From NCBI RefSeq assembly GCF_900188375.1, contig NZ_FZOO01000003.1, positions 1 through 64,000 of the forward strand: 64,000 bases of DNA. Direction: 5' to 3'. The position numbers and the translations under genes were made by a program. The notes under the pieces were generated by a model that made no database searches, was not told the DNA's origin, and saw only the letters and a list, made by a program, of their open reading frames with translations. Positions 10,671-28,819 of the stretch are shown in pieces. The stretch is from Geodermatophilus pulveris. GTDB taxonomy: Bacteria > Actinomycetota > Actinomycetes > Mycobacteriales > Geodermatophilaceae. Every line of letters starts with the position of its first letter. Position 1 is the stretch's first letter.

Positions 10671-11189
10671 TCAGGCGGGGACGGGGGCGTGCGCCGCCTC
10701 GTGGTCGAGCAGCCAGCGCTTGACCGGCGTCCCCCAGCGGAAGCCGCCGAGCCCGCCGTCGGAGCCGAGCACCCGGTGGCAGGGGACGAACAGGGCCGCG
10801 GCGTTGCGCGCGCAGGCGTTGGCCGCCGCCCGGACCGCGGCGGGGCGCCCGCAGCGGGCGGCGAAGGCGGCGTAGCTGTCCGGCGTGCCGGCCGGGACGG
10901 TGCGCAGCACCTGCCAGGCGTCCTCGAGGAAGGGGCCGGAGCGCTGCCGCACCGGGACGCCGTCGATGGCGGCCACGTCCCCGGCGACGAACGCGGCGAC
11001 CGCGTCGAGCACGGGCAGGTGCCCGGCCGGCTGCACCGACGGCGGGCGCAGCGAGCGGTGGACGACGGGCAGCAGCTCGCCGACGTCGGCGGTCCAGCCG
11101 CTGGCGAGCACGGCGCCGTCGCGGTCGACGACCACGGTGAACGGCCCGGGCGGGGTGTCGAGGGTCGCGGTGCGGGCGGACGGGATCAC
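10671..11189 (-). CDS. ogt: Methylated-DNA--protein-cysteine methyltransferase
   Basis: A 172-aa suicide protein that moves O6-alkyl groups from guanine to its own cysteine. The acceptor motif PCHRV lies at residues 136-140 with C137. The helix-turn-helix before it (SYAAFAARCGRPAAVRAAAN, then ACARN with the Asn/Arg finger) and the following LGSDGGLGGFRWGTPVKRWLL are canonical. The GTG start at 11189 overlaps the stop of the upstream Ada-AlkA gene by 4 nt, so the two repair proteins are probably co-expressed. Confidence 0.93.
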   Translation of the reverse strand: MIPSARTATLDTPPGPFTVVVDRDGAVLASGWTADVGELLPVVHRSLRPPSVQPAGHLPVLDAVAAFVAGDVAAIDGVPVRQRSGPFLEDAWQVLRTVPAGTPDSYAAFAARCGRPAAVRAAANACARNAAALFVPCHRVLGSDGGLGGFRWGTPVKRWLLDHEAAHAPVPA

Positions 11190-12700
11190 GAGGCGCTCCG
11201 ATCGGGGGTGGGGGCGAGCGGTCGGGTGGTCGGGGCGGGTGGGCGGGAGAAGAGGAGAGGCGCGGCCACGGCCCACAGGTGCATGACGGCGTAGGACCGC
11301 CACGGCCGCCAGCGGGTCGCGGCCTCGGCGTCGGAGCTGCCGAGGGCGGCCAGCGAGCGGCGCAGCGCCAGGTCGCCGGGCAGCCACACGTCGGGGTCGC
11401 CCAGCCCGCGCATGGCGACCACCGCGGCCGTCCACGGGCCGATGCCGCGGACGGCCTGCAGCGCCCGGCCGGCCTCGGCGCGGTCGGCGCCGGGGTCCAG
11501 CGTCACCGCGCCGGAGTCCAGCGCCTCGGCCAGCGCGTGCACGGTGCGCCGGCGCGCGCCGGTGAGGCCCACGGCGGCCAGGTCGGCGTCGGCCAGGGCG
11601 GCCGGCCGGGGGAAGGCGTGGGTCAGCGTGCCGACCGGCTCGGGCATCGGCGTGCCGGCGGCGCGCAGCAGGCGGGCGGTGAGCGTGCGGGCGCCGGCCA
11701 CGGACACCTGCTGGCCCAGGACCGCGCGGACGGCGAGCTCGTCGGCGTCCGGCGCGGCGGGCACCCGGCGGCCGGGCGCGGCGGCGACCAGCGCGCCGAG
11801 CGCGGGGTCGGCCCCGAGGACGCCGTCGACCGCGGCCGGGTCGGCGTCGAGGTCCAGCATCCGGCGGCAGCGGGCCACCGCCGTCCCGAGGTCACGCAGG
11901 GCGGTGAGCTGCAGCCGCGCGGTCACCGCCGGGCCACCGTCCGCGGCGGGGGACAGCTGCACCACGCCGGGGCCGTGCGGCAGGTCGAGCACGCGGGCGA
12001 ACGTCGTGCCGTCCCACTCCTCCAGGCCGGGGACGGCGTGCCCGCCGAGGAACAGCAGCACCTCGGCGGCCTCGTACGGGGCCCGGGCGGCCAGCCGCAG
12101 GGTGAGCCGGCCGGGCGTGCCCAGGGGAGCGGCGGCGCGGGTGCGGCGCAGCCCGGTCGGGGTGGTCGCGAAGACCTCGCGGACGGTGTCGTTGAACTGC
12201 CGGATGCTGGCGAAGCCCGCGGCGAAGGCGACGTCGGACACCGGCAGGTCGGTGGTCTCCAGCAGCAGCCGGGCGGTCTGCGCGCGCTGGGCGCGGGCCA
12301 GCGCCAGCGGGCCGACCCCGAGCTCGCCGACCAGCAGCCGGTGCAGCTGGCGCTCGGAGTAGCCCAGCCGCGCGGCCAGCCCCGGGACGCCGGAGCGCTC
12401 GACCTCGCCGTCGCCGATCAGCCGCATGGCGCGGGCGACGACGTCGGCGCGCACGTCCCACTCCGGCGAGCCGGGGACGGCGTCCGGCCGGCAGCGGCGG
12501 CAGGCCCGGTAGCCCGCACCCTGCGCGGCCGCGGCGGTGGAGTAGAAGCTCACGTTGCCCGGCAGCGGCGTGCGGGCCGGGCAGGACGGGCGGCAGTAGA
12601 TGCCGGTGGTGGCGACCGCGGTGACGAACCAGCCGTCGAAGCGCGCGTCGCGGCTGGCCACCGCCCGGTAGCAGCGCTCGGGGTCCAGCGACGAGGTCAC
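11186..12700 (-). CDS. Ada-type regulator fused to AlkA-type DNA glycosylase
   Basis: A 504-aa fusion. Residues 1-75 are the Ada zinc domain that accepts methyl groups from DNA methylphosphotriesters, with Zn cysteines C36, C40, C67 and C70. Residues about 85-185 hold an AraC-type HTH (LAARLGYSERQLHRLLVGEL, AFAAGFASIRQFNDTVREVF). Residues about 195-310 resemble the AlkA N-terminal domain. Residues about 320-490 are a HhH-GPD glycosylase (LGQQVSVAGARTL; VRGIGPWTAAVVAMRGLGDP; catalytic Asp in VWLPGD). It excises 3-methyladenine-type lesions and probably activates its own operon on methylation. The start is GTG 12700. The O6-methylguanine transferase domain of E. coli Ada is supplied instead by the coupled ogt. 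Confidence 0.92.
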   Translation of the reverse strand: MTSSLDPERCYRAVASRDARFDGWFVTAVATTGIYCRPSCPARTPLPGNVSFYSTAAAAQGAGYRACRRCRPDAVPGSPEWDVRADVVARAMRLIGDGEVERSGVPGLAARLGYSERQLHRLLVGELGVGPLALARAQRAQTARLLLETTDLPVSDVAFAAGFASIRQFNDTVREVFATTPTGLRRTRAAAPLGTPGRLTLRLAARAPYEAAEVLLFLGGHAVPGLEEWDGTTFARVLDLPHGPGVVQLSPAADGGPAVTARLQLTALRDLGTAVARCRRMLDLDADPAAVDGVLGADPALGALVAAAPGRRVPAAPDADELAVRAVLGQQVSVAGARTLTARLLRAAGTPMPEPVGTLTHAFPRPAALADADLAAVGLTGARRRTVHALAEALDSGAVTLDPGADRAEAGRALQAVRGIGPWTAAVVAMRGLGDPDVWLPGDLALRRSLAALGSSDAEAATRWRPWRSYAVMHLWAVAAPLLFSRPPAPTTRPLAPTPDRSAS

Positions 12701-18206: not shown

Positions 18207-18506
18207 CTAGGCGGGACGGCCGTCGTCGCGGACGACCCGCAGGTGCGGGCCGGTGCAGATGTCGGCACGGGGGTCCGCCAGCAGGGGCAGCCCGGCCAGC
18301 CGGCGGACCCGGTTCTCCGGGACGTCGAGCGCGCGGGCCAGCGCGGCCGCCAGGCGCTCGCTGACCATGCCGGAGTGCCGGCCGTCGGCGATGCGGGTGA
18401 TGGTCTCCGGTGCGATCGCCCACTGGGCCCTCCGCGATGCCGCCTGAGCGGTCGAGGACAGCTCCAGCAGGCGCCGTCGCACCAGCTGCTGCAGGTCGTC
18501 AGCCAC
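18207..18506 (-). CDS. Small helix-turn-helix protein, possible cluster regulator
   Basis: A 99-aa protein from GTG 18506. The segment AIAPETITRIADGRHSGMVS followed by ERLAAALARALDVPENRVRR has the spacing of an XRE-like HTH: a recognition helix, then a helix of the LA.AL.V....V type. It lies 66 nt downstream of the epimerase gene on the same strand, so it could be the last gene of the ten-enzyme operon. A pathway-specific role is inference from position only. Confidence 0.6.
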   Translation of the reverse strand: MADDLQQLVRRRLLELSSTAQAASRRAQWAIAPETITRIADGRHSGMVSERLAAALARALDVPENRVRRLAGLPLLADPRADICTGPHLRVVRDDGRPA

Positions 18507-18572
18507 CCGGCGAGGCTAGAGCGGACCCGGCCGCCAGGGGGCGGCGTCGCGCTGCCGCGTGCGGGACGGCGC

Positions 18573-19469
18573 TCAGAGCGGCTGCTGCGCCCGCCAGGCG
18601 ACCCAGGCGCTGTGCACCACCGCTCGCAGGTCGCGGCGGGCGCGGAAACCCAGCTCCCGGGCGGTCCGGTCGGCCGCGGCCACCCGCCCCGGCGTCGCGG
18701 TGCCCGGCCCGGCATCCCCGGGGGCGGTGCCGGCGCCGGTGACCTCGCCGACCAGCCGCAGCACCTCCCCGTCGCCGGCCGGCTCGCCGCGGCCCACGTC
18801 GAAGGTGCCCCCGAGGGAGCCGGCGGCCAGCGCGCGCACGGCGGCCAGGTGCGCGTCCGCGACGTCGGCGACGTGCACCAGGTCCAGCCCGGCAGCGGGC
18901 GGCACCGGCTGCCGGCCCTCGTCGACGGCCCGGAAGACCGCCGCGAGCGGGCCGGCCGGGTCCCGGTCGCCGAGCTCCGGCGCGCCGGCGCCGGCTGCGT
19001 CCCGGCAGCGCAGGACGACGGCGGCCGATCCCCACGCGGCGCCGTCCTGCACCGCCCACTCCGCGGCCAGCGCCGCCCGGCCGTAGGACGACACCGGAGC
19101 GCCGTCGGCGTCCGGCCGGGCGGCCGCGGTCGAGGACAGCACGAGGCGCGCGACGCCCTTGGCGCGGCAGCTCTCCAGCAGCGCGACGGTGCCCTCGACG
19201 TTCTCCGTCCACCACGGCAGCGGGTCGGCGGCCGGCTCCCCGGCCCGCCCGGCCAGGTGGACGACGCCGCGGACGGCGTGCTCGCGCAGCACCCGGCGTA
19301 CCAGCCCGCGGTCGCGGACCGACCCGACGACCAACGGCACCGAGACCAGCCGCCCGGGGTCGCCGGTGGACAGGTCGTCGAGGACGACGACCCGCTCGCC
19401 GGCCGCGGCCATCGCCCGCACGACGTGCGCCCCGACGTACCCGGCGCCGCCGGTGACCAGCCAGGTCAC
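18573..19469 (-). CDS. NAD-dependent sugar epimerase/dehydratase
   Basis: A 298-aa extended-SDR protein similar to UDP-glucose 4-epimerases. The NAD motif TGGAGYVGAHV is at residues 6-16, and VVVLDDLSTG follows the second strand. VVHLAGRAGEP and LVLSSTAAARPD fit the family. The expected catalytic YxxxK region reads SYGRAALAAEW, with Tyr present but Ala in place of Lys, so catalytic competence is doubtful. GTG 19469 overlaps the upstream PIG-L stop by 4 nt. In the operon it could change a nucleotide-sugar donor for the GT4 enzyme, or bind without turning over. Confidence 0.8.
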   Translation of the reverse strand: MTWLVTGGAGYVGAHVVRAMAAAGERVVVLDDLSTGDPGRLVSVPLVVGSVRDRGLVRRVLREHAVRGVVHLAGRAGEPAADPLPWWTENVEGTVALLESCRAKGVARLVLSSTAAARPDADGAPVSSYGRAALAAEWAVQDGAAWGSAAVVLRCRDAAGAGAPELGDRDPAGPLAAVFRAVDEGRQPVPPAAGLDLVHVADVADAHLAAVRALAAGSLGGTFDVGRGEPAGDGEVLRLVGEVTGAGTAPGDAGPGTATPGRVAAADRTARELGFRARRDLRAVVHSAWVAWRAQQPL

Positions 19470-20179
19470 CGGACCGCCCCCGGCACCGCCGCCCGCGCCC
19501 GGTCCCCGGCCAGCAGCACCTCGGGCAGCCCGGCCAGCGCCGCGCGCATCGCCTCCGGGCCGCCGAACTGGAAGCCGAGCTGGGTGGCGTAGCAGGCGCA
19601 CGCGTCGGCACGCCGGTCGAGGTCCTGCGGGAGGCGGACCTCGGCCAGCCCGCCGGGCAGCCCGGGGCCGGGCACGGCGCCCGGTTCGCGCAGCACGTAG
19701 GGGCTGTCCCGCCACCACAGCACCGGCCGGTCCAGCGCGGCCACCGCCCGCAGCACCTGCAGGTGGTCGACGTGCCCGCCGAGGGCCTGCGGGGCCAGCC
19801 ACAGGTCGGCGTCCTGCCCGGCCAGCTCGGCGGCCAGCTCTCGCCAGACGTCGTCCGCCGGGTGCACGCCGGCGAACAGGTCGGCGGCGCTGGTGTAGCC
19901 GCGGTGCGGCGCCTCGGGCAGCCCCAGGTGCACCGGGGTGGCGCCCAGCACGGCCATCGCGGCGGTGTCCTCTGCCCGGCGCAGCGCCATGTAGTCGACG
20001 TCGGCGGCCAGTCCCTTGTCCAGCTGGCAGGCCAGGGCGAACCCTGCCGGGTCCGGCACGCTCGCGGTGAAGCAGGTGAGCACGGTGACCTCGTGTCCGG
20101 CACCGGCCAGCGCGGCCAGCGTGCCGCCGGCGGAGAACGCGGCGTCGTCCAGGTGCGGGCTGACCGCCAGCACCCGCAT
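19466..20179 (-). CDS. PIG-L family LmbE-like deacetylase
   Basis: A 237-aa zinc deacetylase of the family that includes MshB (mycothiol) and LmbE. The metal motif is SPHLDDAAFSAGG near the N-terminus (AHPDDE equivalent), with the downstream ligand region LGGHVDHLQVLRAV. Such enzymes remove N-acetyl groups from GlcNAc-type substrates. ATG 20179 gives the usual MRVLAVSPHLDD start and shares one base with the upstream GT stop; a GTG at 20182 would give a 4-nt overlap. Coupling to a glycosyltransferase suggests glycosylation followed by deacetylation, as in mycothiol synthesis. Confidence 0.85.
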   Translation of the reverse strand: MRVLAVSPHLDDAAFSAGGTLAALAGAGHEVTVLTCFTASVPDPAGFALACQLDKGLAADVDYMALRRAEDTAAMAVLGATPVHLGLPEAPHRGYTSAADLFAGVHPADDVWRELAAELAGQDADLWLAPQALGGHVDHLQVLRAVAALDRPVLWWRDSPYVLREPGAVPGPGLPGGLAEVRLPQDLDRRADACACYATQLGFQFGGPEAMRAALAGLPEVLLAGDRARAAVPGAVR

Positions 20180-21387
20180 CACAGCAGGTGCGCGGCGGCG
20201 CGGAAGCGGCAGGAGAGGTCGACCCCGGCCGGCATCGACCAGCCGGCGGCCGGGGTGGTGCCCGCCACCTCGCCGTGGACGGCGTCGATGGCGGCGGCGA
20301 GCACCGGCCAGGAGTACAGCCGGCGCACCTCCTCCAGCGCGGTGCTCGCCAGCCGGGTGCGCAGGTCGCCGTCGGCCAGCAGCCGGCCCAGCGCCGCGCG
20401 CAGCCCGGCCACGTCGCCCGGTGCGTGCAGCAGACCGTTCTGCTCGTGCCGCAGGCAGTCGACGACGCCGACGCTGTCGGTGCTCACCGTCGGCAGCCCG
20501 CTGGCCATCGCCTCCAGCAGGGTGTTGCTGAACCCCTCGCTGTAGGTGGGGCTGACGAACACGTCGGCCGAGCGGTAGACCTCCGGGGCCTCCTCGGGCG
20601 GGACGTAGCCGAGGAACGTCGTCCGCGCGTCGGCTCGGGCCCGGGCCTCGTCGAGGTCCGGGCCGATGCCGGAGACGACCAGCCGGACGCCGTCGGGCAG
20701 CGCCTCGAGCAGGTCCAGCACGCCCTTGCGCCGGTCGACCCGGCCGTGGAACAGCAGCACCGGCGGCTCGCGCAGCGCGCCCAGCGGCCGCTCGCCCGGG
20801 GTGAACCGCCGGGTGTCGGTCGCGCCGGGGACGATCGTGAACCGCGCCGGGTCGCAGCCGAGGTTGCCGACCACCTCGTCGCGGAAGCTGGCGCTGCCGA
20901 TGAGCACCGCCGACGAGGAGTCCACGACGGTGCGCATCGCGTGCGCGTGGGTGGCGCAGCAGGTGCCCACCCAGTGCCCGTCGCCGCCCTGGATGCTCAC
21001 CACCGCCGGCAGCCCGGTCTCCCGCGCGGCGGCCAGCACCGCCAGCCCTGGCGGGTAGCCGTACTGGGCGTGCAGCACGTCGAAGGGGCGCTCGGCGTGC
21101 AGGTCCAGCACCGTCCGGACGATCTCCGCGATGTCGCCCTCCCAGTCGGCGGGGACGACCGTCTCCCCGCGGCTGGGCAGCGCGTGCACCTCCACGCCGC
21201 CGGGCACCCGGTCGGGCGGGGGCGGGCCGCCGCCGTAGACGCGGGTGCCGGCCTCGTCGTCCCGGTACTGGCTGACCAGCACCACCTCGTGGCCGAGGGC
21301 CACCAGCTCGCGCAGCAGGTTCTCCGCGTAGACGCTCATCCCGCTCACCGCCGGCCAGTAGCGCCGGCTGACGAAGCAGATCCTCAC
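20179..21387 (-). CDS. GT4 family glycosyltransferase
   Basis: A 402-aa GT-B enzyme. The N-terminal acceptor domain begins MRICFVSRRYWPAVSGMSVY, and the donor domain has LLFHGRVDRRKGVLDLLEAL, then VSPTYSEGFSNTLLEAMASG containing the E-x7-E motif that binds the nucleotide sugar. MshA-like and other retaining transferases share this layout. The mid-region GGDGHWVGTCCATHAH is unusual for the family, with two adjacent cysteines and several histidines. GTG 21387 overlaps the upstream TIM-barrel gene stop by 4 nt. The acceptor may be the cyclitol made by the first enzyme of the operon (inference). Confidence 0.88.
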   Translation of the reverse strand: MRICFVSRRYWPAVSGMSVYAENLLRELVALGHEVVLVSQYRDDEAGTRVYGGGPPPPDRVPGGVEVHALPSRGETVVPADWEGDIAEIVRTVLDLHAERPFDVLHAQYGYPPGLAVLAAARETGLPAVVSIQGGDGHWVGTCCATHAHAMRTVVDSSSAVLIGSASFRDEVVGNLGCDPARFTIVPGATDTRRFTPGERPLGALREPPVLLFHGRVDRRKGVLDLLEALPDGVRLVVSGIGPDLDEARARADARTTFLGYVPPEEAPEVYRSADVFVSPTYSEGFSNTLLEAMASGLPTVSTDSVGVVDCLRHEQNGLLHAPGDVAGLRAALGRLLADGDLRTRLASTALEEVRRLYSWPVLAAAIDAVHGEVAGTTPAAGWSMPAGVDLSCRFRAAAHLL

Positions 21388-22211
21388 GCCGCCTCCGCCG
21401 CGCGCAGGGTGGCCATCGCCCGCGGCACCATCTCGTGCGCCCGGTGCCCGTCGCGGGACAGCTCCAGGGTGACCAGCCGCTCGTGGCCCACGTCGCGCAG
21501 CGCGCGCAGCACCGCGGGCAGGTCGACGTCGCCCTCGTCGAGGGGCAGGTGGTCGTGCACGCCGCGGCGCATGCCCTCGACGGCGACCGTGCCCAGGTGC
21601 GGGGCGAACGCGCGCACCGCCTCGTGCGGCTCGTACCGCCCGGCGACCACGCAGTGCCCGGTGTCGAGGGCCAGGGAGATCCCGGGCGCCTCGGCGGCCA
21701 GCCGGGCCCAGCCGTCGCAGTCCTCGACCAGCATCCCGGGCTCGGGCTCGACGGCGAGCGAGCAGGCGCGCCCGCCGTGCGAGTCGACCAGGGCGCGCAC
21801 GCCGTCGACCACCCAGCCCCAGGCCTCGGCGCGGTCGACCCCGGGCTTCGGCACGCCGGCCCAGAAGCTCACCGCCTCCGCGCCGAGCACGTCCGCCAGG
21901 TCGCAGGCCAGCCGCAGGTAGGCCAGCCGCCGCGCCCGGCCCTCGGCCGACGCGGTGACCAGCGTCGGCTCGTGCTTGGCCCGCGGGTCGAGCAGGTACC
22001 GGGCGCCGGTCTCCACGACCACGCCCAGGCCCAGCTCGTCGCAGCGCGCCCGCGCCTTCTCGGCCTGGGCGAAGGCGTCGGGGGCGAACGGGTCGAGGTG
22101 GACGACGTCCAGGGTCAGGGCCACGCCCGCGTAGCCGCAGTCGGCGAGGAACGGCAGCGCGTCCATGAGCCGGTGCGAGGTCAGCCCGTTGGTGTTGTAC
22201 GCGTACCTCAC
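21384..22211 (-). CDS. Xylose-isomerase-like TIM-barrel protein
   Basis: A 275-aa sugar-phosphate isomerase/epimerase fold. The N-terminus VRYAYNTNGLTSHRLMDALP and GYAGVALTLDVVHLDP are characteristic. Metal-ligand candidates follow along the barrel: Glu in SLAVEPEPG, Asp/His in LALDTGHCV, His in GVHDHLPL and Glu in LVTLELSRDGH. Members isomerise or epimerise sugars, inositol derivatives or related compounds with a divalent metal. GTG 22211 overlaps the YcaO stop by 4 nt. With a cyclase and an MocA-type oxidoreductase in the same operon, inosose- or cyclitol-level isomerisation is a reasonable guess. Confidence 0.82.
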   Translation of the reverse strand: MRYAYNTNGLTSHRLMDALPFLADCGYAGVALTLDVVHLDPFAPDAFAQAEKARARCDELGLGVVVETGARYLLDPRAKHEPTLVTASAEGRARRLAYLRLACDLADVLGAEAVSFWAGVPKPGVDRAEAWGWVVDGVRALVDSHGGRACSLAVEPEPGMLVEDCDGWARLAAEAPGISLALDTGHCVVAGRYEPHEAVRAFAPHLGTVAVEGMRRGVHDHLPLDEGDVDLPAVLRALRDVGHERLVTLELSRDGHRAHEMVPRAMATLRAAEAA

Positions 22212-23680
22212 CGGGCCAGCACCTCCGCGACCGTGTGCCGGCCGGGCTCCCGGTAGAGGGCGTAGAGGGCGCCCACCCGGCGGTCGGCGCCGGCCCGGTC
22301 GAACCAGGCCGGACCGCCCAGGCGTTCCTCGGCCCCGGGCGTCAGGTGCACGCGCGCCCAGCCGCCGGGGTCGGCGCCCACGACCGCGAGACCCTCGTCG
22401 TGCTCGATCAGCCGGCGCACCCCGCGCTCGCCGATCCGCCCGTAGGACATCGTCTCCACCTCCAGCCCCGGCACCAGCACCTTGGCCGCCACCGCGTCGC
22501 CCACCGACGGCTGCAGCTCGACCAGCACGTCGTGCCCGGCGGCCTGCACCGCGCCGAGCACGGTGGCCGGCAGGTCGCCGCCGTCTCCCGAGCCGGACCA
22601 GGCCGGCAGGTCGGTCAGCGCGACGGTCGACCGGCGGGACAGCACGGTGTCCTGGAGCAGGTCGACCAGCGCGGCGGTGCCCATCCGGGTCCAGGCGAGC
22701 ATCGCCTCCAGCGCGCGGTCCTCCTCGACCAGCCGCTCGGGCGGGTGCCCGCCGCGCCAGTGGTCCAGGTAGCCCGGCGGCGTGGCCGGCAGGACGACGT
22801 CGAACGGGCCGTGCATGAACGCCTTGCGGCTGCGCGCCGAGGCGAACTCGTGCAGCGCCTTGCGGACGGCGGTGTCCCGGTCGGGGTGCGCGGCCTCCCC
22901 GCACGCGGTGGCCATGACCGGCACCGGCTCGGAGAGGTCCCGCGAGCAGCCGACGGCGTACAGGTCGACGACGCCGAACTCCGTCGCCGCGAGCTTCACC
23001 ACGACGTCGATGCCCGCGGCGTCGAGCCGGTCCAGCAGCGATAGCGCGTCGGGGTCGCGCAGCCCGGCCAGGTCGACGACGACGCCGCGGTCCATCGCGC
23101 GGAAGGAGGTGGCGTTGCCGTCGCGCTGCAGCACCTCCAGCAGCGCGTGCGCCACGGCCCGGTCGGCGTCGAAGGCCGCGCCCTGACCGTTGGTGACGAC
23201 CGTGGTCAGCCAGCCGCCGGGCGGTGGGTCCCCGGGCAGGTCGTCGGGGGCCGACGCGACCAGCTCCGCGGGCACCAGCACCGTCTCGCCGTCGCGCTGC
23301 CGGGTCATCGGCAGCCACTGCAGCGGCCGGTCGTCGTCGTGGGCGCTGCCGGCCTCCAGGCACAGGGTGCGCGGGTCGGCCACCCGGTCGCGGCCGTGCC
23401 GGCGGGTCATCTCCGCGTACGAGCCCTGCTCGCGCTGCACCCCCTGGTGGGCGCGCAGCGACAGCGCCATCTCCGCCATCTCGCCGAGCGCCCCGGTGCG
23501 CGCCTCCTCGCGGGTGGCGCCGTAGCCGAGGCCGCTGCCGCCGGGGTGCGCCGGCGACGGCGTCAGGACGGCGCTGTGCAGCGGCACGTCGAGGACGTCG
23601 AGGCCCTCGATGGCGAACTCGTCGACCGGCGCAGGGAAGGAGTCGAGGTACCGCTGCGAGGCGGTGAGGGTGCCCGTCAC
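22208..23680 (-). CDS. YcaO-like protein
   Basis: A 490-aa protein with the YcaO ATP-binding layout: EEARTGALGEMAEMALS (58-74), the hallmark TNGQGAAFDADRAVAHALLE (163-182) followed by VLQRD, and KALHEFASARSRKAF. YcaO enzymes activate an amide oxygen with ATP, giving azolines, thioamides, amidines or ribosomal-protein thiomethylation. The C-terminus lacks the PxPxP of azoline-forming members. No precursor peptide, E1-like partner, TfuA or dehydrogenase is nearby. GTG 23680 has GGAGG 9 nt upstream and follows a 55-bp gap, the only real gap among the ten enzyme genes. A non-peptide amide or carboxylate substrate is possible. Confidence 0.85.
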   Translation of the reverse strand: MTGTLTASQRYLDSFPAPVDEFAIEGLDVLDVPLHSAVLTPSPAHPGGSGLGYGATREEARTGALGEMAEMALSLRAHQGVQREQGSYAEMTRRHGRDRVADPRTLCLEAGSAHDDDRPLQWLPMTRQRDGETVLVPAELVASAPDDLPGDPPPGGWLTTVVTNGQGAAFDADRAVAHALLEVLQRDGNATSFRAMDRGVVVDLAGLRDPDALSLLDRLDAAGIDVVVKLAATEFGVVDLYAVGCSRDLSEPVPVMATACGEAAHPDRDTAVRKALHEFASARSRKAFMHGPFDVVLPATPPGYLDHWRGGHPPERLVEEDRALEAMLAWTRMGTAALVDLLQDTVLSRRSTVALTDLPAWSGSGDGGDLPATVLGAVQAAGHDVLVELQPSVGDAVAAKVLVPGLEVETMSYGRIGERGVRRLIEHDEGLAVVGADPGGWARVHLTPGAEERLGGPAWFDRAGADRRVGALYALYREPGRHTVAEVLAR

Positions 23681-23735
23681 AGTGTTGTCCTCCGTCCGCT
23701 CCCGGCCGGCGGAGCCGGCGTGGTCATCGAGCCGC

Positions 23736-24695
23736 TCACAGGTCGGCCAGCGGGACGGGGGCGGCGTCCGGCGGCCCGGACAGCAGCCGCTGCACCAGGT
23801 GCACGACGTGGTCGGTGGTGACCCCCGGGACCATCTCGAACGGCGTCGCGACGACCCCGAAGTCGAGCTCGGCGACGACCGCGAGCATCTCGCGCAGCTC
23901 GCCGTGCGACAGCGGGATCTGCGCGTGGAACGCCTTGTGCGCGCTCAGCGCGACCGGGTCGCCGGCGTCGTCGAGGTCCACCTTGAGCGAGTCGCCGCAG
24001 AACAGGATGCCGCGGCGGGAGTCGTGCAGCACCGAGTGCCCGGGGAAGTGCCCGCCGGTGCGGTGCAGGGTGAGGTCGGGGGCCAGGGTCAGGACGTCGT
24101 CGGCCGGCCAGGTGACCCGGAAGGCCTTGGTCCAGGGCAGGTCGTGCACGTTGACGCAGACCACCCGCGGCTCCAGCTCCGCCTGCAGCTGCCACAGCGC
24201 GCCGTAGCCGTGCACGTGGGATGACGCCAGCACCGGGAAGCCGCCGTGCGCGTCGGCCATCCGGCGCAGCTCGGCGAGCATGTCGGCCGTGTACCAGGGC
24301 GCGCACTCGAAGCCGACCAGGCCGATGTCGGTCTCCACCACCCAGCCGCGGCTGTCCAGGCCGAAGCGCGGCTCGGTGCCGAACTCGGTGACGCCGTCCA
24401 CCGGCGCGGGCCGCCAGAAGCCGGTGACCAGCTCGTCGGCCTGCTTGTCGGTGACGAACTCGAAGCCGTCCTCGGGCAGCGCGTTGCGCACGTCGGCGCA
24501 GACCGGGCACACCTGCGGGCCGGGGGCCGGCCAGCGCTGCCAGTGCCCGCAGTTGGTGCAGGCGTAGGCGGGCAGGTCCGGCAGCAGGCCGCGGTAGGGG
24601 TTGGTGTCCACCTGGCTGGACCCGTGGCGGGCGCCGGGGTCGGCGGCGGGGTCGGTGGCCCGGTCGATGGCGCCGGGCACGTCGGGCGAGGTCAC
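23736..24695 (-). CDS. Metallo-beta-lactamase-fold protein with N-terminal zinc ribbon
   Basis: A 319-aa protein. After a polar leader, residues 46-66 form a rubredoxin-like CxxC-x13-CxxC zinc ribbon (ACTNCGHW ... VCPVCAD). The rest has an MBL-like layout: GLVGFECAPWYTADM, ASSHVHGYGALWQ where HxHxDH is expected, then TGGHFPGHSVLHD and ILFCGDSLKVD. The second His and Asp motifs are good, but the first motif has lost its Asp-His, so metal binding must differ from classical members. GTG 24695 overlaps the upstream oxidoreductase stop by 4 nt. It could be a hydrolase or redox-type enzyme of the pathway. Confidence 0.75.
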   Translation of the reverse strand: MTSPDVPGAIDRATDPAADPGARHGSSQVDTNPYRGLLPDLPAYACTNCGHWQRWPAPGPQVCPVCADVRNALPEDGFEFVTDKQADELVTGFWRPAPVDGVTEFGTEPRFGLDSRGWVVETDIGLVGFECAPWYTADMLAELRRMADAHGGFPVLASSHVHGYGALWQLQAELEPRVVCVNVHDLPWTKAFRVTWPADDVLTLAPDLTLHRTGGHFPGHSVLHDSRRGILFCGDSLKVDLDDAGDPVALSAHKAFHAQIPLSHGELREMLAVVAELDFGVVATPFEMVPGVTTDHVVHLVQRLLSGPPDAAPVPLADL

Positions 24696-25684
24696 GCGGG
24701 GCCTCCGGAGAGAGCGGTGAGGAGCAGGCGGTGCAGGGCGAGGTCGCGGGCGGGGTCGTACGGCCACCGCGCGCGGCCCGCGACCGCGGCGGTGAAGGCG
24801 GCGAACTGCGCCTGGAACGGCGAGGTGCCGGCGAACGGCACGTCCACCGGCCCGGGGCGGTACAGCGTGAGCGAGCCTCCCGCCGTCTGGCCCATCGTGT
24901 CGACGGCGACCGCCATCCCGCGGGTGCCGACCACCTCCAGCCGGCGGCGGGGCAGCGCGTCGGGGGTGTTGAAGGCGACGTGCAGGCCGACCAGCACCCC
25001 GCCGGCGGTGGTGCCGGTGAGCAGCGCGCCGTCGTCGACGCCGTAGTCGTGCACCCGGGTCTGCAGCCGCGCGGACAGCTCGACCACGTCCTCGCCGAGC
25101 AGCACGCCGGCCAGGTCCAGGCCGTGCGGGGCCAGGTCGATCGCCGCACCCCCGCCGGCGCGGACCGGGTCGACCCGCCAGTTGTCGTGCGGGCGGCCGT
25201 CCGGCGTCCAGTCGGCGGGCAGCCAGCAGCAGTAGACGACCCGGACGGCGGTGACGGTGCCCAGCTCGGGCACCAGCTCGCGCAGCCGCACGTGCGCGGG
25301 GTGCCAGCGCTGGTCGTACGCCGTCCCGAGCAGGACGCCGGCGTCGCGGGCGGCGGTCACCACGGCCCGGGCGTCGGCGACGTCGGCGGCCAGCGGCTTC
25401 TCGCAGAGCACCGCCTTCCCGGCCGCGGCAGCGGCCTCGACCAGCGGGCGGTGCGCGGCGTTGGGGACGGCGACGTAGACGGCGTCCAGCCCGGGCGTGG
25501 CGAGGAACCCGGCGAGGTCGGTGCTCCGGTGGGCGCCCTCGACCGGCATCCGGGCCAGCGCGGCCGGGTCGCGGTCGTGCAGCGCGACGACCCGCGCGCC
25601 CGGGTCGCTGAGCAGCGCGGGCAGCGCGTGGTCGCGGGCCACCCAGCCGCAGCCGGCGATGCCCCACCCGACGGTGCCGCTCAC
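24692..25684 (-). CDS. Gfo/Idh/MocA family oxidoreductase
   Basis: A 330-aa NAD(P)-dependent dehydrogenase. The Rossmann motif GIAGCGWVARDHALPAL begins at residue 8. EKP at 95-97 supplies the conserved catalytic/cofactor Lys in VLCEKPLAADV. DQRWHPAH and AIDLAPHGLDLAGVLLGED match the C-terminal active-site His region (H in the GGxxxDxxxH-type motif). Relatives oxidise myo-inositol, glucose-type sugars or 3-keto derivatives. GTG 25684 overlaps the methyltransferase stop by 4 nt. With an inositol-phosphate-synthase homologue at the head of the operon, an inosose-forming step is plausible. Confidence 0.85.
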   Translation of the reverse strand: MSGTVGWGIAGCGWVARDHALPALLSDPGARVVALHDRDPAALARMPVEGAHRSTDLAGFLATPGLDAVYVAVPNAAHRPLVEAAAAAGKAVLCEKPLAADVADARAVVTAARDAGVLLGTAYDQRWHPAHVRLRELVPELGTVTAVRVVYCCWLPADWTPDGRPHDNWRVDPVRAGGGAAIDLAPHGLDLAGVLLGEDVVELSARLQTRVHDYGVDDGALLTGTTAGGVLVGLHVAFNTPDALPRRRLEVVGTRGMAVAVDTMGQTAGGSLTLYRPGPVDVPFAGTSPFQAQFAAFTAAVAGRARWPYDPARDLALHRLLLTALSGGPA

Positions 25685-26706
25685 CAGGCGTCCGGGAGGT
25701 CGACCAGCAGCCGGCGGCGGGCGGCGTCGGGCGGCAGCGGGTCCGGCCAGCGGGCCGGCAGGTACCCCGAGCGCGGGCCGTACTCGGCGGCGTAGCGCCC
25801 GCTGGGCCAGCGCAGCCCGCCGCCGGCGTACAGCGGGTTGGGCCGCAGCGGCCCCAGCGGCTCGCCGAGGTCCACCGGGGCCGGGGCCAGCGGGTCGCCG
25901 GCCACCAGCGCGACCGCCTCGCTGCCGTGCAGGGCGGCGGCGGGGGCCGGTCGCGGCGGGCGGCCGGCCAGCAGCGCGCCGGTGAGCTCGGCGTCGTCGT
26001 AGAGCAGGTCGGTGCCGAGCACCGCGGCGTAGCCCTCCGGCGTCAGGGGCTGCCCGTGCGGGTCGGCGACGTGCGCGTGGCCGACGACGACGGTGCCGCC
26101 GTCCCCGGCCAGCGCCCGCATCGCCGCGGCCGCGGCCGGCTTGTCCCGCAGGAAGTAGAAGGCGTCGTGGCACAGCACGTACGCAGGCCGGGGCACGCCC
26201 AGCTCGGGGGTGGCGGTGACGTCGGCGCAGACGTAGCGGGCGGCGGGGCAGACGAAGCGGCGGGCCAGCCAGAGCTTCGCCCAGACGACGTCGACGCCGG
26301 TGAGGTCGGTGCAGCCGCGGCGGGCCAGCTCGCGCAGGTGCGTGCCCGTGCCGCAGGCGACGTCGACCACCGGCCGCGCGCCGGGCCAGTGCTGCTGCAG
26401 CAGCGCCAGCCCGGCGAGGTGGGTGGGGTCGGACCAGCGGTGCGCGAAGTAGTCCGCGACCCGGCCCATGCCGAGCAGCGCCATCGCCTCGCGCAGGGTC
26501 GTCGCGGCCGGCACGCGGGCCAGCTGCTCGGCCGGCGGGGGCGGCTCGGTCCACCAGTCGTCGGCGTCGGCCAGCAGCAGCACGCGGGCGCGGTCGACCT
26601 CCCCGTGCGCCAGCAGGCCGGCCACCTCCGCGCGCAGCTCGTCGCGCCCGGCGCGGGCGAACGGGATGCCGTCGACCACCGGGACCGCGGGTGCAGCAGT
26701 ACTCAC
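25681..26706 (-). CDS. Class I SAM-dependent methyltransferase
   Basis: A 341-aa protein with an N-terminal helical extension (about 1-105), a SAM-binding core with motif I VVDVACGTGTHL at 113-124, then LTGVDVVWAKLWLARRF, YVCADVTATPELG and YVLCHDAFYFL. The C-terminal 120 residues (from about 220) are Pro-rich, with LYAGGGLRWPSGRYAAEYGP, and match nothing I know. GTG 26706 overlaps the upstream HD-like gene by 4 nt. Substrate unknown; O- or N-methylation of the pathway product is the simplest reading. Confidence 0.8.
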   Translation of the reverse strand: MSTAAPAVPVVDGIPFARAGRDELRAEVAGLLAHGEVDRARVLLLADADDWWTEPPPPAEQLARVPAATTLREAMALLGMGRVADYFAHRWSDPTHLAGLALLQQHWPGARPVVDVACGTGTHLRELARRGCTDLTGVDVVWAKLWLARRFVCPAARYVCADVTATPELGVPRPAYVLCHDAFYFLRDKPAAAAAMRALAGDGGTVVVGHAHVADPHGQPLTPEGYAAVLGTDLLYDDAELTGALLAGRPPRPAPAAALHGSEAVALVAGDPLAPAPVDLGEPLGPLRPNPLYAGGGLRWPSGRYAAEYGPRSGYLPARWPDPLPPDAARRRLLVDLPDAW

Positions 26707-27602
26707 AGGCCGGCCGCCGCCAGCACGTCGAGGTGGAAGGCCTGCACCGGCCCGGCGTGCACCAGCTCCAGGTCGTCCAGGGCCTGCGAGGCGGTGAACG
26801 CCGCGGCCCGGGCGTGGTGGTGCACCTGGAGCACCCGGTCGAGCACGTCGGCGGCGTGGAAGGCCTGCGACTCCGGCGCCCCGGCGTCGGCGCGCAGCCG
26901 CAGCACCGCCCGCAGGCGCTGCGCCAGCGCCCCGGGCAACGCGGCGAGCTCGCGGGCCTCCAGTGTCGCGACCACCCGGTCCAGCGCGGACCCGAGCAGC
27001 ACCTCGCCGGCGAACCCGGCGTCGGGCAGCTCGACGTTGTGCAGGTGGTGGGCGATCCCGACGAGGAACGGCGCGACCGGGTCGGCGCCGAACACCGGCG
27101 CGAGGAGGACCCCGTACACCGCCACGGTGAGGCAGTGGTCGCCGTGGCTCTCCGGCGGCTCGACCACCACCCGCGCCCGCCCGGGGGCGGTGGCCCCGGC
27201 GCGCGGCTGCGCGTTGAGCCGCGCGGCCAGCGGCGGCGGCTCCGGCGCCGGGACGGCGAGCGGCAGCGCCTCGCGCAGCACCGAGCGCAGCCCGGGGTCG
27301 AGCGGGCCGGCGACCTCGTCGAACCCGCGGCGCAGCACGCCGCGCGCCTCGTCGTCGGCCAGGCCGGCCGTGCGCAGCACCGCACCGTCGATGCCCGCCA
27401 GCCGCGCCCGGGCCACGGCGGCGGCGGTCTCCGAGACCGCGACGGCGGCCGGGTCCTCGCCGGCGACCAGCCGCCCCCAGCTTCGGGCGAAGGCCTGCTC
27501 GGCGAGGGACCCGGGCGCGCCGGCGACGCGGACCCGCTTGGCGTCGCCGACCTCGGTCAGCAGCGGGCGGAGCCGGGCGAGGGCGGGGGAGCCCCCCGTC
27601 AC
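26703..27602 (-). CDS. HD-domain-like protein
   Basis: A 299-aa helical protein I do not recognise as a named family. Residues 150-200 carry an HD-like pattern: H153 and H156 in ESHGDHCLTVAVYG, then H185/H186 and H188 in GIAHHLHNVELPDAGFAGEV. The paired HH is where HD phosphohydrolases have HD, with an Asp a few residues later. A last histidine-rich stretch, VLQVHHHARA, could complete a metal site. GTG 27602 overlaps the upstream cyclase stop by 4 nt, so it is an integral member of the operon. It could dephosphorylate the cyclised sugar phosphate, or be an oxygenase-type HD enzyme; neither is shown. Confidence 0.6.
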   Translation of the reverse strand: MTGGSPALARLRPLLTEVGDAKRVRVAGAPGSLAEQAFARSWGRLVAGEDPAAVAVSETAAAVARARLAGIDGAVLRTAGLADDEARGVLRRGFDEVAGPLDPGLRSVLREALPLAVPAPEPPPLAARLNAQPRAGATAPGRARVVVEPPESHGDHCLTVAVYGVLLAPVFGADPVAPFLVGIAHHLHNVELPDAGFAGEVLLGSALDRVVATLEARELAALPGALAQRLRAVLRLRADAGAPESQAFHAADVLDRVLQVHHHARAAAFTASQALDDLELVHAGPVQAFHLDVLAAAGL

Positions 27603-28819
27603 CGGCCGGTCGCGCCGGTGGTCACCCAGTCCAGCAGCACCCGCTCCTGGCGGTGCAGGGCGTGCTCGGGGGTGCTGCCGTCGGGCGTCATCGGGGCCTT
27701 GAAGAACCAGCCCAGCTGGGTCTGCACCCCGCCCTGCCCGCGCTGCTGGGCCAGGTCGGTCAGCCGGGCCAGCTCGATGGCCAGCGGGGCGGCCAGGATC
27801 GAGTCGCGGCACAGGAAGTCGACCTTGACCTGCATGCGCTGGCCGAGGAAACCGACCAGGTCGATGGCGTCCCAGGCCTCCTTCTGGTCCCCGCGCGGGC
27901 GGTAGTAGTCGATCCGCACGACGTGGTCCTCGACGGGGTAACCGAGGATGGAGTCCAGCACGCTGCCCTTGGTCTGCAGCTTGCTCTGCAGCGAGGCCGG
28001 GTCGTCCAGCGCCAGGCCGTCGCGGTTGCCCAGGATGTTGGTCGAGTACCAGCCCTCGACGGTGAGCGCACGGCTGCGGAAGGCCGGGGCGAGCACCGTC
28101 TTCATCATCGTCTGGCCGGTCTTGCCGTCCTTGCCGGCGACCGGTACCCCGTGCCGCTCGGCCAGCTCGACCAGCGCCGGGACGTCGGCGGCCAGCGACG
28201 GCGTGAAGTTGACGTACCCGACACCCTCGGCGATCGCCGCGTAGGCGTACACCATCGACGGCGTGATCGAGCGGTCGTCGGCGTCCAGCCCGGCCTCGAA
28301 GGCCTCGGTGGACTGCAGCGCCGGCGCCGCCGGGTCCGGCCAGCGCTCCGTGGAGGCCAGGTTCACCAGCACCAGCCCGTCGAGCCGCTCCTCCTCGCGG
28401 AAGCGGACCAGGTCGGCGCGGACGGCATCGACCTGGGCGCGGCGGGTCTCGGCGAGGACCACGTTGCCGCCGGTCACGTTGCGGCAGAAGTCGGCGTCGC
28501 CGGCCGCCGGCCACGGCGTCACCGACGACAGGTACGGCCCGGCCTGCGCCAGCTGGTGGTGGTCCAGGACCCCGTGCTGCTCGGCGGCCTTGCGCAGGTC
28601 GCTGCCGTCGAGGTCCCAGCCGCCGACGACGAGGTCGGTGTACTCGACCATCCCGGTCGCCGCCTCGACGGGCCGGCCGTCGACCGCCAGCCCCGCGAGC
28701 GGCAGCCCCGCGGTGTCACCCCCGGCGCGCAGCAGGTCCAGACCCGCGACCGCGGTCGTCGCGACCGCTCCGCCCAGGCCGACCACGGCCATCCCCACCC
28801 GTCGTGGTGCACCGGACAA
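27599..28819 (-). CDS. Inositol-3-phosphate synthase family protein
   Basis: A 406-aa NAD-dependent cyclase homologue, first gene of the operon. The nucleotide motif GLGGAVATT is at 14-22. NLASTE at 153-158 and GKDGKTGQTMMK at 229-240 correspond to the NxxSTE and S/GxDxKxGQTxxK motifs that hold NAD and the catalytic lysine. QTKGSVLDSILGY, VVRIDYYRPRGDQKEAWDAI and VDFLCRDSILAAPLAIELAR also fit. MIPS converts glucose-6-phosphate to inositol-3-phosphate by oxidation, aldol cyclisation and reduction. The start is set at TTG 28819 because GAGGGGG precedes it by 5 nt and the first beta-strand (RRVGMAVVG) must be included; GTG or ATG a few codons later are alternatives. Confidence 0.85.
   Translation of the reverse strand: MSGAPRRVGMAVVGLGGAVATTAVAGLDLLRAGGDTAGLPLAGLAVDGRPVEAATGMVEYTDLVVGGWDLDGSDLRKAAEQHGVLDHHQLAQAGPYLSSVTPWPAAGDADFCRNVTGGNVVLAETRRAQVDAVRADLVRFREEERLDGLVLVNLASTERWPDPAAPALQSTEAFEAGLDADDRSITPSMVYAYAAIAEGVGYVNFTPSLAADVPALVELAERHGVPVAGKDGKTGQTMMKTVLAPAFRSRALTVEGWYSTNILGNRDGLALDDPASLQSKLQTKGSVLDSILGYPVEDHVVRIDYYRPRGDQKEAWDAIDLVGFLGQRMQVKVDFLCRDSILAAPLAIELARLTDLAQQRGQGGVQTQLGWFFKAPMTPDGSTPEHALHRQERVLLDWVTTGATGR

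What the first reader, a model, noticed from the sequence alone, without database searches (positions are those of the whole stretch)
18207..28819. Ten-enzyme overlapping operon for an unknown cyclitol/pseudosugar-type metabolite
Ten minus-strand enzyme genes run without interruption. Eight of the nine junctions share bases between stop and start (4-nt GTGA, or 1-4 nt at PIG-L); the only gap is 55 bp before the YcaO gene. The set is: inositol-phosphate-synthase homologue, HD-like protein, methyltransferase, Gfo/Idh oxidoreductase, MBL-fold protein with zinc ribbon, YcaO, TIM-barrel isomerase, GT4, PIG-L deacetylase, sugar epimerase; a small HTH gene follows. The overlaps are seen directly and the family calls come from motifs. 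That they make one product is inference. I know of no described pathway with this combination.
Basis: partly seen in the sequence, partly recalled or inferred. Interest (0 to 1): 0.88.

Follow-up and report, generated by a model that had tools for sequence, protein, structure and literature searches.

The report
Nine-gene inositol–YcaO operon, product unknown
Nine enzyme genes in this soil bacterium turn up in the same order in distantly related bacteria of three phyla, several of them genera known for resisting radiation, so they very probably build one undescribed small molecule from inositol and an amino sugar.

Summary
The overlapping gene row is real and most family calls hold. It is a nine-gene unit, not ten: INO1, atypical HD, methyltransferase, Gfo/Idh, zinc-ribbon MBL, YcaO, IolE-like TIM barrel, GT4, PIG-L. 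The epimerase and the small eleventh gene are local. All nine occur in the same order and strand in 35 of 47 distinct loci with enough flank; same-strand genes keep their order in 58 of 58 distinct loci (duplicates removed). Hosts are Actinomycetota (Geodermatophilaceae, Kineococcus, Actinomycetospora, Micromonospora, Rubrobacter), Pseudomonadota (Acidisphaera, Roseomonas, Methylobacterium) and Bacteroidota (Hymenobacter); the last three genera's copies are on plasmid records. Mycothiol-type MshA and INO1 lie elsewhere in the genome, so this is not the mycothiol locus. A related YcaO without the other genes sits, in two lineages, near an ABC importer and a polysaccharide-deacetylase-like gene; in 98 related genomes that deacetylase and the operon's HD gene never co-occur. 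Best reading: an aminoglucosyl-cyclitol pathway with a non-RiPP YcaO step, probably for stress protection. Product, YcaO substrate and stress role are inferred. Six paper searches showed no description in the rows listed.

The parts
27599..28819 (-). g1: myo-inositol-phosphate synthase homologue (406 aa, TTG start)
   Evidence: PF07994 221 bits and PF01658 117 bits; best solved relative 7nwr inositol-3-phosphate synthase, 293 bits; not the mycothiol INO1 type (40.5 against 638 bits)
26703..27602 (-). g2: atypical HD-fold protein (299 aa); the HD dyad reads HH
   Evidence: profile of 32 relatives matches HD-fold 1xx7 at E 0.011; H156, H185, H186, D252 among the invariant columns of 32 rows
25681..26706 (-). 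g3: SAM-dependent methyltransferase (341 aa)
   Evidence: PF13649 38.3 bits; missing in place in Hymenobacter L086 and Rubrobacteraceae L097
24692..25684 (-). g4: Gfo/Idh/MocA oxidoreductase (330 aa)
   Evidence: PF22725 and PF01408 over cut-off; best solved relatives are 1,5-anhydro-D-fructose reductases, with inositol and sugar dehydrogenases further down
23736..24695 (-). g5: metallo-beta-lactamase-fold protein with N-terminal zinc ribbon (319 aa)
   Evidence: PF00753 25.6 bits; C46, C49, C63, C66, H160, H162, H216, H220, D235 among the invariant columns of 36 rows; missing in both Methylobacterium loci
22208..23680 (-). g6: YcaO protein (490 aa)
   Evidence: PF02624 169 bits; only YcaO match in its genome; E67, E70, N164, E182, R186, D187, E278, R283 conserved in 25 of 25 operon and 7 of 7 importer-associated sequences aligned
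21384..22211 (-). g7: AP_endonuc_2 (xylose-isomerase-like) TIM barrel (275 aa), IolE-like
   Evidence: PF01261 102.5 bits; only solved relative found at E up to 0.01 is IolE, E 1e-5
20179..21387 (-). g8: GT4 glycosyltransferase (402 aa)
   Evidence: PF13692, PF00534, PF13579; MshA- and BshA-related but far below their cut-offs; nearest solved relative is 6kih Tll1590 (70 bits), then PimA (60) and MshA-type 3c4q (59)
19466..20179 (-). g9: PIG-L-family deacetylase (237 aa from ATG; 238 aa from GTG at 20182)
   Evidence: PF02585 56 bits; SPHLDD and HVDH motifs, their zinc role recalled
18573..19469 (-). g10: NAD-dependent sugar epimerase (298 aa); local addition, not part of the conserved unit
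   Evidence: PF01370 121 bits; relatives in 14 of 47 named loci by clustering, in 5 of them downstream of PIG-L on the same strand (L041, L042, L043, L044, L048)
   Evidence: no Pfam match at E up to 0.001; found near the operon in 5 of 47 named loci, all Geodermatophilus (L046, L049, L053, L054, L063)

Best explanation
The nine genes are one horizontally spread biosynthetic operon. INO1 makes inositol phosphate from glucose 6-phosphate; a Gfo/Idh oxidoreductase and an IolE-like TIM barrel oxidise and rearrange the cyclitol; the GT4 enzyme adds a GlcNAc-type sugar and the PIG-L enzyme deacetylates it, as MshA and MshB do for mycothiol; the methyltransferase, the HD protein, the zinc-ribbon MBL protein and a YcaO that has no precursor peptide finish it. 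The product is thus an aminoglucosyl-cyclitol, with YcaO doing an ATP-dependent late step on a sugar-type small molecule, and its likely use is protection against UV, drying or oxidation. Shown: the unit, its order, its spread and the family assignments. Inferred: every reaction, the product and its use. The operon as one pathway is about 95% likely; the glycosylated-cyclitol class about 65%; the stress role about 45%.
For: Same-strand order kept in 58 of 58 distinct loci and complete in 35 of 47 with enough flank. Same nine in five Rubrobacteraceae loci and Roseomonas (annotated); Methylobacterium lacks MBL and Hymenobacter lacks MT. In plasmid records, HD and YcaO hits are the same four. In 98 relatives all 24 HD-positive genomes are YcaO-positive. 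Protein distances correlate 0.67-0.96 in 20 sequences. INO1 is strongly similar to inositol-phosphate synthases; the TIM barrel is nearest IolE. No gene for a precursor peptide fits inside the overlapped operon. Importer-associated YcaO in two lineages near an ABC transporter and a deacetylase-like gene. Stress link: one paper's list of eight radiation-resistant bacterial genera includes Rubrobacter, Kineococcus, Methylobacterium and Hymenobacter (PMC4148983 introduction, read); repair genes near the operon in several lineages.
Against: No product, substrate or phenotype is known. HD has HH instead of the HD dyad and MBL lacks the D-H of HxHxDH, so their hydrolase roles are doubtful. None of the nine is an evident amide-forming enzyme, while known YcaO enzymes act on amides (recalled). 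GT4's nearest solved relative is not MshA. Seven of ten Actinomycetospora loci lack TIM, GT4 and PIG-L (one of them on a short contig), Kineococcus lacks INO1 and TIM in place, Methylobacterium lacks MBL, Hymenobacter and one Rubrobacteraceae contig lack MT, and two MAG contigs (L057, L077) lack YcaO, so not every step is needed everywhere or some genes lie elsewhere. In the Hymenobacter copy Gfo/Idh is annotated in two pieces and the GT4 match has no listed gene, so that copy may be partly broken. The stress link is at genus level: only 6 of 39 Rubrobacteraceae have the HD gene, and the same list names Deinococcus, Truepera, Acinetobacter and Chroococcidiopsis, in which no copy was seen; outside Actinomycetota only plasmid records and one scan with MBL were searched. 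The repair-gene link was noticed afterwards and has no measured base rate.
Confidence: 0.6

Rival explanations
1. A mycothiol- or bacillithiol-like low-molecular-weight thiol pathway: GlcN-inositol core, with YcaO and MBL replacing the cysteine ligase to install the sulfur.
For: INO1, GT4 and PIG-L repeat the first steps of mycothiol; GT4 is related to MshA and BshA; a bshB1 gene lies beside the Hymenobacter copy.
Against: No MshC or BshC homologue among the operon proteins; scores far below MshA, MshB and INO1 cut-offs; separate mycothiol-type MshA and INO1 in the same genome.
Confidence: 0.2
2. A RiPP (YcaO azoline, thioamide or amidine) cluster whose precursor peptide is encoded elsewhere, decorated with a sugar.
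For: YcaO scores 73.7 bits to the SagD-type model and 72.6 to the McrA-glycine thioamidation model.
Against: Both scores are far below the cut-offs (219 and 365); no precursor gene inside the operon and no TfuA or ThiF-type partner among its proteins; stand-alone YcaO relatives sit near ABC importers and deacetylase-like genes.
Confidence: 0.1
3. A variant surface-glycan or glycolipid pathway that builds an inositol-containing glycan precursor.
For: GT4 is also related to PimA (60 bits); some loci have an epimerase, Acidisphaera a GT2, Roseomonas mdoH next door.
Against: No flippase, polymerase or lipid-carrier enzyme among the nine; neighbours mostly differ between genera.
Confidence: 0.1

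Closest known systems
Mycothiol biosynthesis (INO1, MshA, MshB)
   Same: Inositol-phosphate synthase, GT4 and PIG-L deacetylase, which in mycothiol act in that order (recalled)
   Different: Different INO1 type, no MshC or MshD in the operon, other enzymes including YcaO and MBL; mycothiol-type MshA and INO1 lie elsewhere in the genome
YcaO proteins for thioamides and azolines (MJ1094, SagD-type)
   Same: YcaO domain; MJ1094 is the only solved relative found at E up to 0.001
   Different: No precursor peptide or partner protein in the operon; shares it with cyclitol and sugar enzymes; relatives near ABC importers
ebo cluster (EboA-E)
   Same: Enzyme cluster of unknown chemistry found in several phyla, with a TIM barrel protein (passages of PMC9235831 read)
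   Different: No EboA, UbiA, TatD or 3-dehydroquinate-synthase match among the ten proteins
Inositol catabolism (IolG, IolE)
   Same: Gfo/Idh oxidoreductase and IolE-like barrel
   Different: Gfo/Idh scores 86.8 bits against the IolG cut-off of 355; joined to synthesis (INO1) and glycosylation

Membership tests
Mycothiol pathway | MshA equivalog score (462.5 bits) | tested here: not met
   g8 scores 65.6 bits; another gene of this genome scores 627 bits
Mycothiol pathway | MshB or Mca equivalog score | tested here: not met
   g9 scores 18.9 and 23.8 bits against 224 and 277
Mycothiol pathway | mycothiol-type INO1 (638 bits) | tested here: not met
   g1 scores 40.5 bits; another gene scores 683 bits
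Mycothiol pathway | MshC cysteine ligase in the operon | tested here: not met
   no such match among the ten operon proteins; not searched for elsewhere in the genome
YcaO superfamily | YcaO domain with conserved acidic, Asn and Arg residues | tested here: met
   PF02624 169 bits; residues conserved; their ATP-binding role is recalled
YcaO-type RiPP cluster | precursor peptide gene inside the operon | tested here: not met
   genes overlap end to end; the only gap among the ten is 55 bp; a precursor elsewhere was not searched for
YcaO-type RiPP cluster | TfuA, ThiF or similar partner in the operon | tested here: not met
   no such Pfam match
ebo cluster | EboA-E family proteins | tested here: not met
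   no match in Pfam or NCBIfam
Aminocyclitol antibiotic cluster | PLP aminotransferase for the cyclitol (recalled as typical) | tested here: not met
   none among the ten proteins
HD phosphohydrolase | H...HD...D metal site | tested here: not met
   dyad position reads HH (H185, H186 invariant in A4), placed by the weak alignment
Metallo-beta-lactamase, two-metal site | HxHxDH motif | tested here: not met
   reads H-V-H-G-[Y/F]-G in the rows visible; H160, H162, G163 and G165 invariant
Inositol-phosphate synthase | catalytic activity | not testable with these tools
   similarity only

The most novel reading that the evidence does not exclude
A previously unknown class of small molecule, an aminoglucosyl-cyclitol finished by a YcaO that works on a carbohydrate rather than a peptide, made by a mobile operon shared among UV- and desiccation-hardy bacteria of three phyla, while related species carry only the YcaO with an importer and take the compound or its precursor up from producers.
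Probability: 0.35. Interest if true: 0.9.

Novelty: new variant of a known kind. Interest (0 to 1): 0.74.

Why it matters
Nine genes kept in order across Actinomycetota, Pseudomonadota and Bacteroidota, partly on plasmid records, are under strong shared selection, yet six searches of the held paper library aimed at this operon showed no description in the rows listed. If the reading holds, YcaO chemistry extends to sugars or cyclitols, and several genera known for radiation resistance share a metabolite that could be tested directly as a protectant.

Tried and rejected
Mycothiol locus: rejected, because mycothiol-type MshA and INO1 lie elsewhere in the genome. ebo cluster: considered because of INO1 and a TIM barrel, rejected. 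RiPP cluster: no precursor gene in the operon. Defence system: at E up to 1e-5 PADLOC gave only a methyltransferase match of 38 bits. Link to the UVA-absorbing compound of Methylobacterium: no gene for it was named in the passages I saw of two papers (listing); dropped. Repair-gene neighbourhood: kept only as a hint, because it was noticed afterwards, its base rate was not measured, and neighbours of many loci were judged by eye or not scanned.

Literature: sought this operon or its YcaO chemistry; some searches listed 20 of 60, 20 of 53 and 20 of 139 papers, so the unlisted ones were not seen. Searches were about ebo and Methylobacterium UVA compounds. I saw passages of PMC9235831, PMC8561711, PMC12573535 and PMC4148983 and read the introduction of the last; all other papers were seen as search listings with the start of the abstract.
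Full report
The observation. The window lies in a genome of Geodermatophilaceae, very probably Geodermatophilus: the closest relatives of the MBL protein come from that genus, and G005, given as same genus, has a contig of the length of the named Geodermatophilus locus L045. Eight of nine junctions overlap; the ninth is a 55-bp gap before YcaO. Pfam confirms eight families over their cut-offs, the MBL call narrowly, and leaves the HD call below its cut-off. A profile of 32 HD relatives matches HD-fold structures weakly (E 0.011), with HH where HD proteins have HD.

The unit is nine genes. A scan of genome contigs with the MBL protein gave 47 loci. In one search, 61 loci were tabulated; three (L103, L104, L105) have the contig lengths of L045, L040 and L055 and are removed here as duplicates. 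The test took only genes on the strand of the Gfo/Idh (or MBL) gene; these keep the order in 58 of 58 distinct loci. Left out by that rule are opposite-strand matches in three loci: INO1 at the contig edge of L074, and TIM relatives of 34-35% identity in the Kineococcus loci L059 and L061. Of 47 distinct loci with enough flank, 35 have all nine, 6 Actinomycetospora loci have only the first six, 2 Methylobacterium loci lack MBL, 1 Goekera locus lacks INO1, 1 Hymenobacter locus lacks MT, and 2 Kineococcus loci lack INO1 and TIM in place (L059 also MT). Outside that set, L057 and L077, both MAG contigs, lack YcaO between MBL and TIM, and the short Rubrobacteraceae contig L097 lacks MT. These loci were recruited by MBL, HD or YcaO, so presence of the recruiting gene is not independent evidence.

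The tenth and eleventh genes. The epimerase clusters in 14 of 47 named loci. It follows PIG-L on the same strand in 5 (three Modestobacter, L043 and L048) and lies on the other strand in 9 (seven Geodermatophilus, one Blastococcus, and a distant relative upstream in one Micromonospora). The small ORF g11 was found in 5 of 47 loci, all Geodermatophilus, and has no Pfam match. Flanking genes mostly differ between genera; some flanking families recur within Geodermatophilaceae, and clusters c11, c12 and c31 recur in Geodermatophilus and Actinomycetospora (they look like succinate dehydrogenase by eye).

Spread. In plasmid records, the HD protein hits four: Methylobacterium aquaticum, M. bullatum, Roseomonas haemaphysalidis and Hymenobacter volaticus; YcaO hits the same four. 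In the Hymenobacter copy Gfo/Idh is annotated in two pieces and the GT4 match lies where no gene is listed; it may be partly broken. In a draw of 396 Actinomycetota genomes HD occurs in 7: the window's genome and six of family f32. That family was identified as Rubrobacteraceae by a 100% match of a fetched piece of G170 to the Rubrobacter indicoceani plasmid NZ_CP031116.1. In the same draw YcaO hits 15 genomes at E up to 1e-10, of which 10 are strong (E below 1e-100): the same seven plus three Rubrobacteraceae without HD. HD occurs in 6 of 39 Rubrobacteraceae. Cross-phylum identities are high for some proteins (GT4 64% and INO1 64% between Hymenobacter and the window), and pairwise-distance correlations among the nine proteins run from 0.67 to 0.96 in 20 sequences. 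This fits a unit that moved as a block.

A second context of YcaO. Of 98 related genomes (the window's included), 32 have a YcaO match and 24 have HD; all 24 are in the 32. Of the other eight, seven match strongly and one weakly (57 bits). Four of those seven contexts were read (L098 to L101), plus three in Rubrobacteraceae (L129 to L131). A deacetylase-like gene lies near YcaO in all seven; its Pfam match (Polysacc_deac_1) is over the cut-off in L129, below it in L100 and L101, and absent in L098. Two ABC permeases lie near YcaO in six of seven (L130 starts inside YcaO), with a solute-binding protein: directly before YcaO on the same strand in L129 and L131, adjacent on the other strand in L098 and L099, beside it in L100, and about 7 kb away in L101, where the solute-binding match is cut by the end of the locus. 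The permeases and deacetylases of the two lineages are homologous; the L129 solute-binding protein did not match those of L098 to L101. That the transporter is of carbohydrate type is my reading, not a Pfam label. The deacetylase occurs in 9 of 98 relatives: all seven strong YcaO-without-HD genomes and two genomes without YcaO; in none of the 24 HD-positive ones (for many genomes not all first-look candidates were scored). In a YcaO tree the two importer groups fall in different places, one beside Rubrobacter operon sequences (support 0.85), one beside Actinomycetospora and Micromonospora operon sequences (0.98); the root is uncertain. I infer that this YcaO works on a carbohydrate-type compound that can also be taken up from outside; a degradative role is not excluded.

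How it may work. INO1 is closest to solved inositol-phosphate synthases 7nwr and 1u1i (293 and 182 bits; that these are Bacteroides and archaeal is recalled). The TIM barrel's only solved relative found is IolE. The Gfo/Idh enzyme is nearest 1,5-anhydro-D-fructose reductases, with inositol and sugar dehydrogenases further down. GT4 and PIG-L are related to the mycothiol and bacillithiol enzymes but far below their cut-offs; GT4's nearest solved relative is Tll1590, ahead of PimA and MshA. The same genome holds a mycothiol MshA (627 bits) and a mycothiol INO1 (683 bits) elsewhere. So the operon looks like a parallel aminoglucosyl-cyclitol pathway. YcaO keeps its conserved residues in 25 of 25 operon sequences aligned. 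No evident amide-forming enzyme is in the unit, so the YcaO substrate is the main unknown; the acetamide of a GlcNAc residue before deacetylation is one guess. The HD and MBL proteins are invariant at unusual positions, and I assign them no reaction with confidence.

Why stress. A genome paper on Rubrobacter radiotolerans lists Deinococcus, Truepera, Rubrobacter, Kineococcus, Methylobacterium, Acinetobacter, Hymenobacter and Chroococcidiopsis as radiation-resistant bacteria (introduction of PMC4148983); four of these eight genera have the operon, or most of it, here. Repair genes lie near the operon in several lineages: uvsE (within 10 kb) and two spore-photoproduct-lyase-type genes in Roseomonas, a spore-photoproduct-lyase-family gene in L092, an Fpg/Nei-family glycosylase directly downstream in L094 and L095 (over the Pfam cut-offs except one zinc-finger model in L094, below the NCBIfam equivalog ones), a uracil-DNA-glycosylase-family gene directly downstream in both Methylobacterium loci, Ada/AlkA and Ogt in one group of Geodermatophilus (seven loci and the window, where they lie at 11189-12700 and 10698-11177), Ku and LigD in Goekera, and an AlkZ-like glycosylase directly upstream in Actinomycetospora L062. 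Against this: the pattern was noticed afterwards, the base rate is unknown, the Geodermatophilus cases are one event, and for Modestobacter, the other Geodermatophilus group, most Blastococcus, Kineococcus, Micromonospora, the six-gene Actinomycetospora loci, Acidisphaera, Hymenobacter, G084 and two Rubrobacter loci (L093, L096) I saw none, partly by eye.

Literature. Six searches of the held library for this operon or its YcaO chemistry showed no description in the rows listed; three of the lists were capped at 20, and most subscription papers and all preprints are outside the library, so a description may exist.

Verdict.

Noticed in passing
L098, L099, L100, L101, L129, L131: A second recurring set: two ABC permeases with a solute-binding protein, YcaO and a polysaccharide-deacetylase-like gene, in two lineages of Actinomycetota; in 98 relatives the deacetylase never co-occurs with the nine-gene operon's HD gene.
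   Followed up: partly
L089, L092, L094, L095, L087, L088, L046, L055, L062: DNA-repair genes of different families lie near the operon in several lineages; base rate not measured.
   Followed up: partly
window 10698-12700, minus strand: Ada/AlkA-type and Ogt-type repair genes downstream of the operon on the same strand.
   Followed up: partly
L086:19392-20126: A bacillithiol deacetylase gene (bshB1) lies directly beside the operon, on the other strand, on the Hymenobacter volaticus plasmid.
   Followed up: no
L086:12957-14005 and L092:5925-6952: The Gfo/Idh gene appears in two pieces in the Hymenobacter copy (annotation) and in L092 (ORF calls).
   Followed up: no
L065, L069, L070, L071, L072, L078: Six Actinomycetospora loci keep only the first six genes, and one regulator family (cluster c19, in seven Actinomycetospora loci; IclR in L072) lies next to YcaO there; whether TIM, GT4 and PIG-L lie elsewhere is unknown.
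   Followed up: no
L090 and other plasmid hits: Distant relatives (26-30% identity in the rows listed) of the zinc-ribbon MBL protein are common on Pantoea, Cronobacter and Rhizobium plasmids; in the one annotated case read (Pantoea, L090) none of the other operon genes is near it.
   Followed up: no
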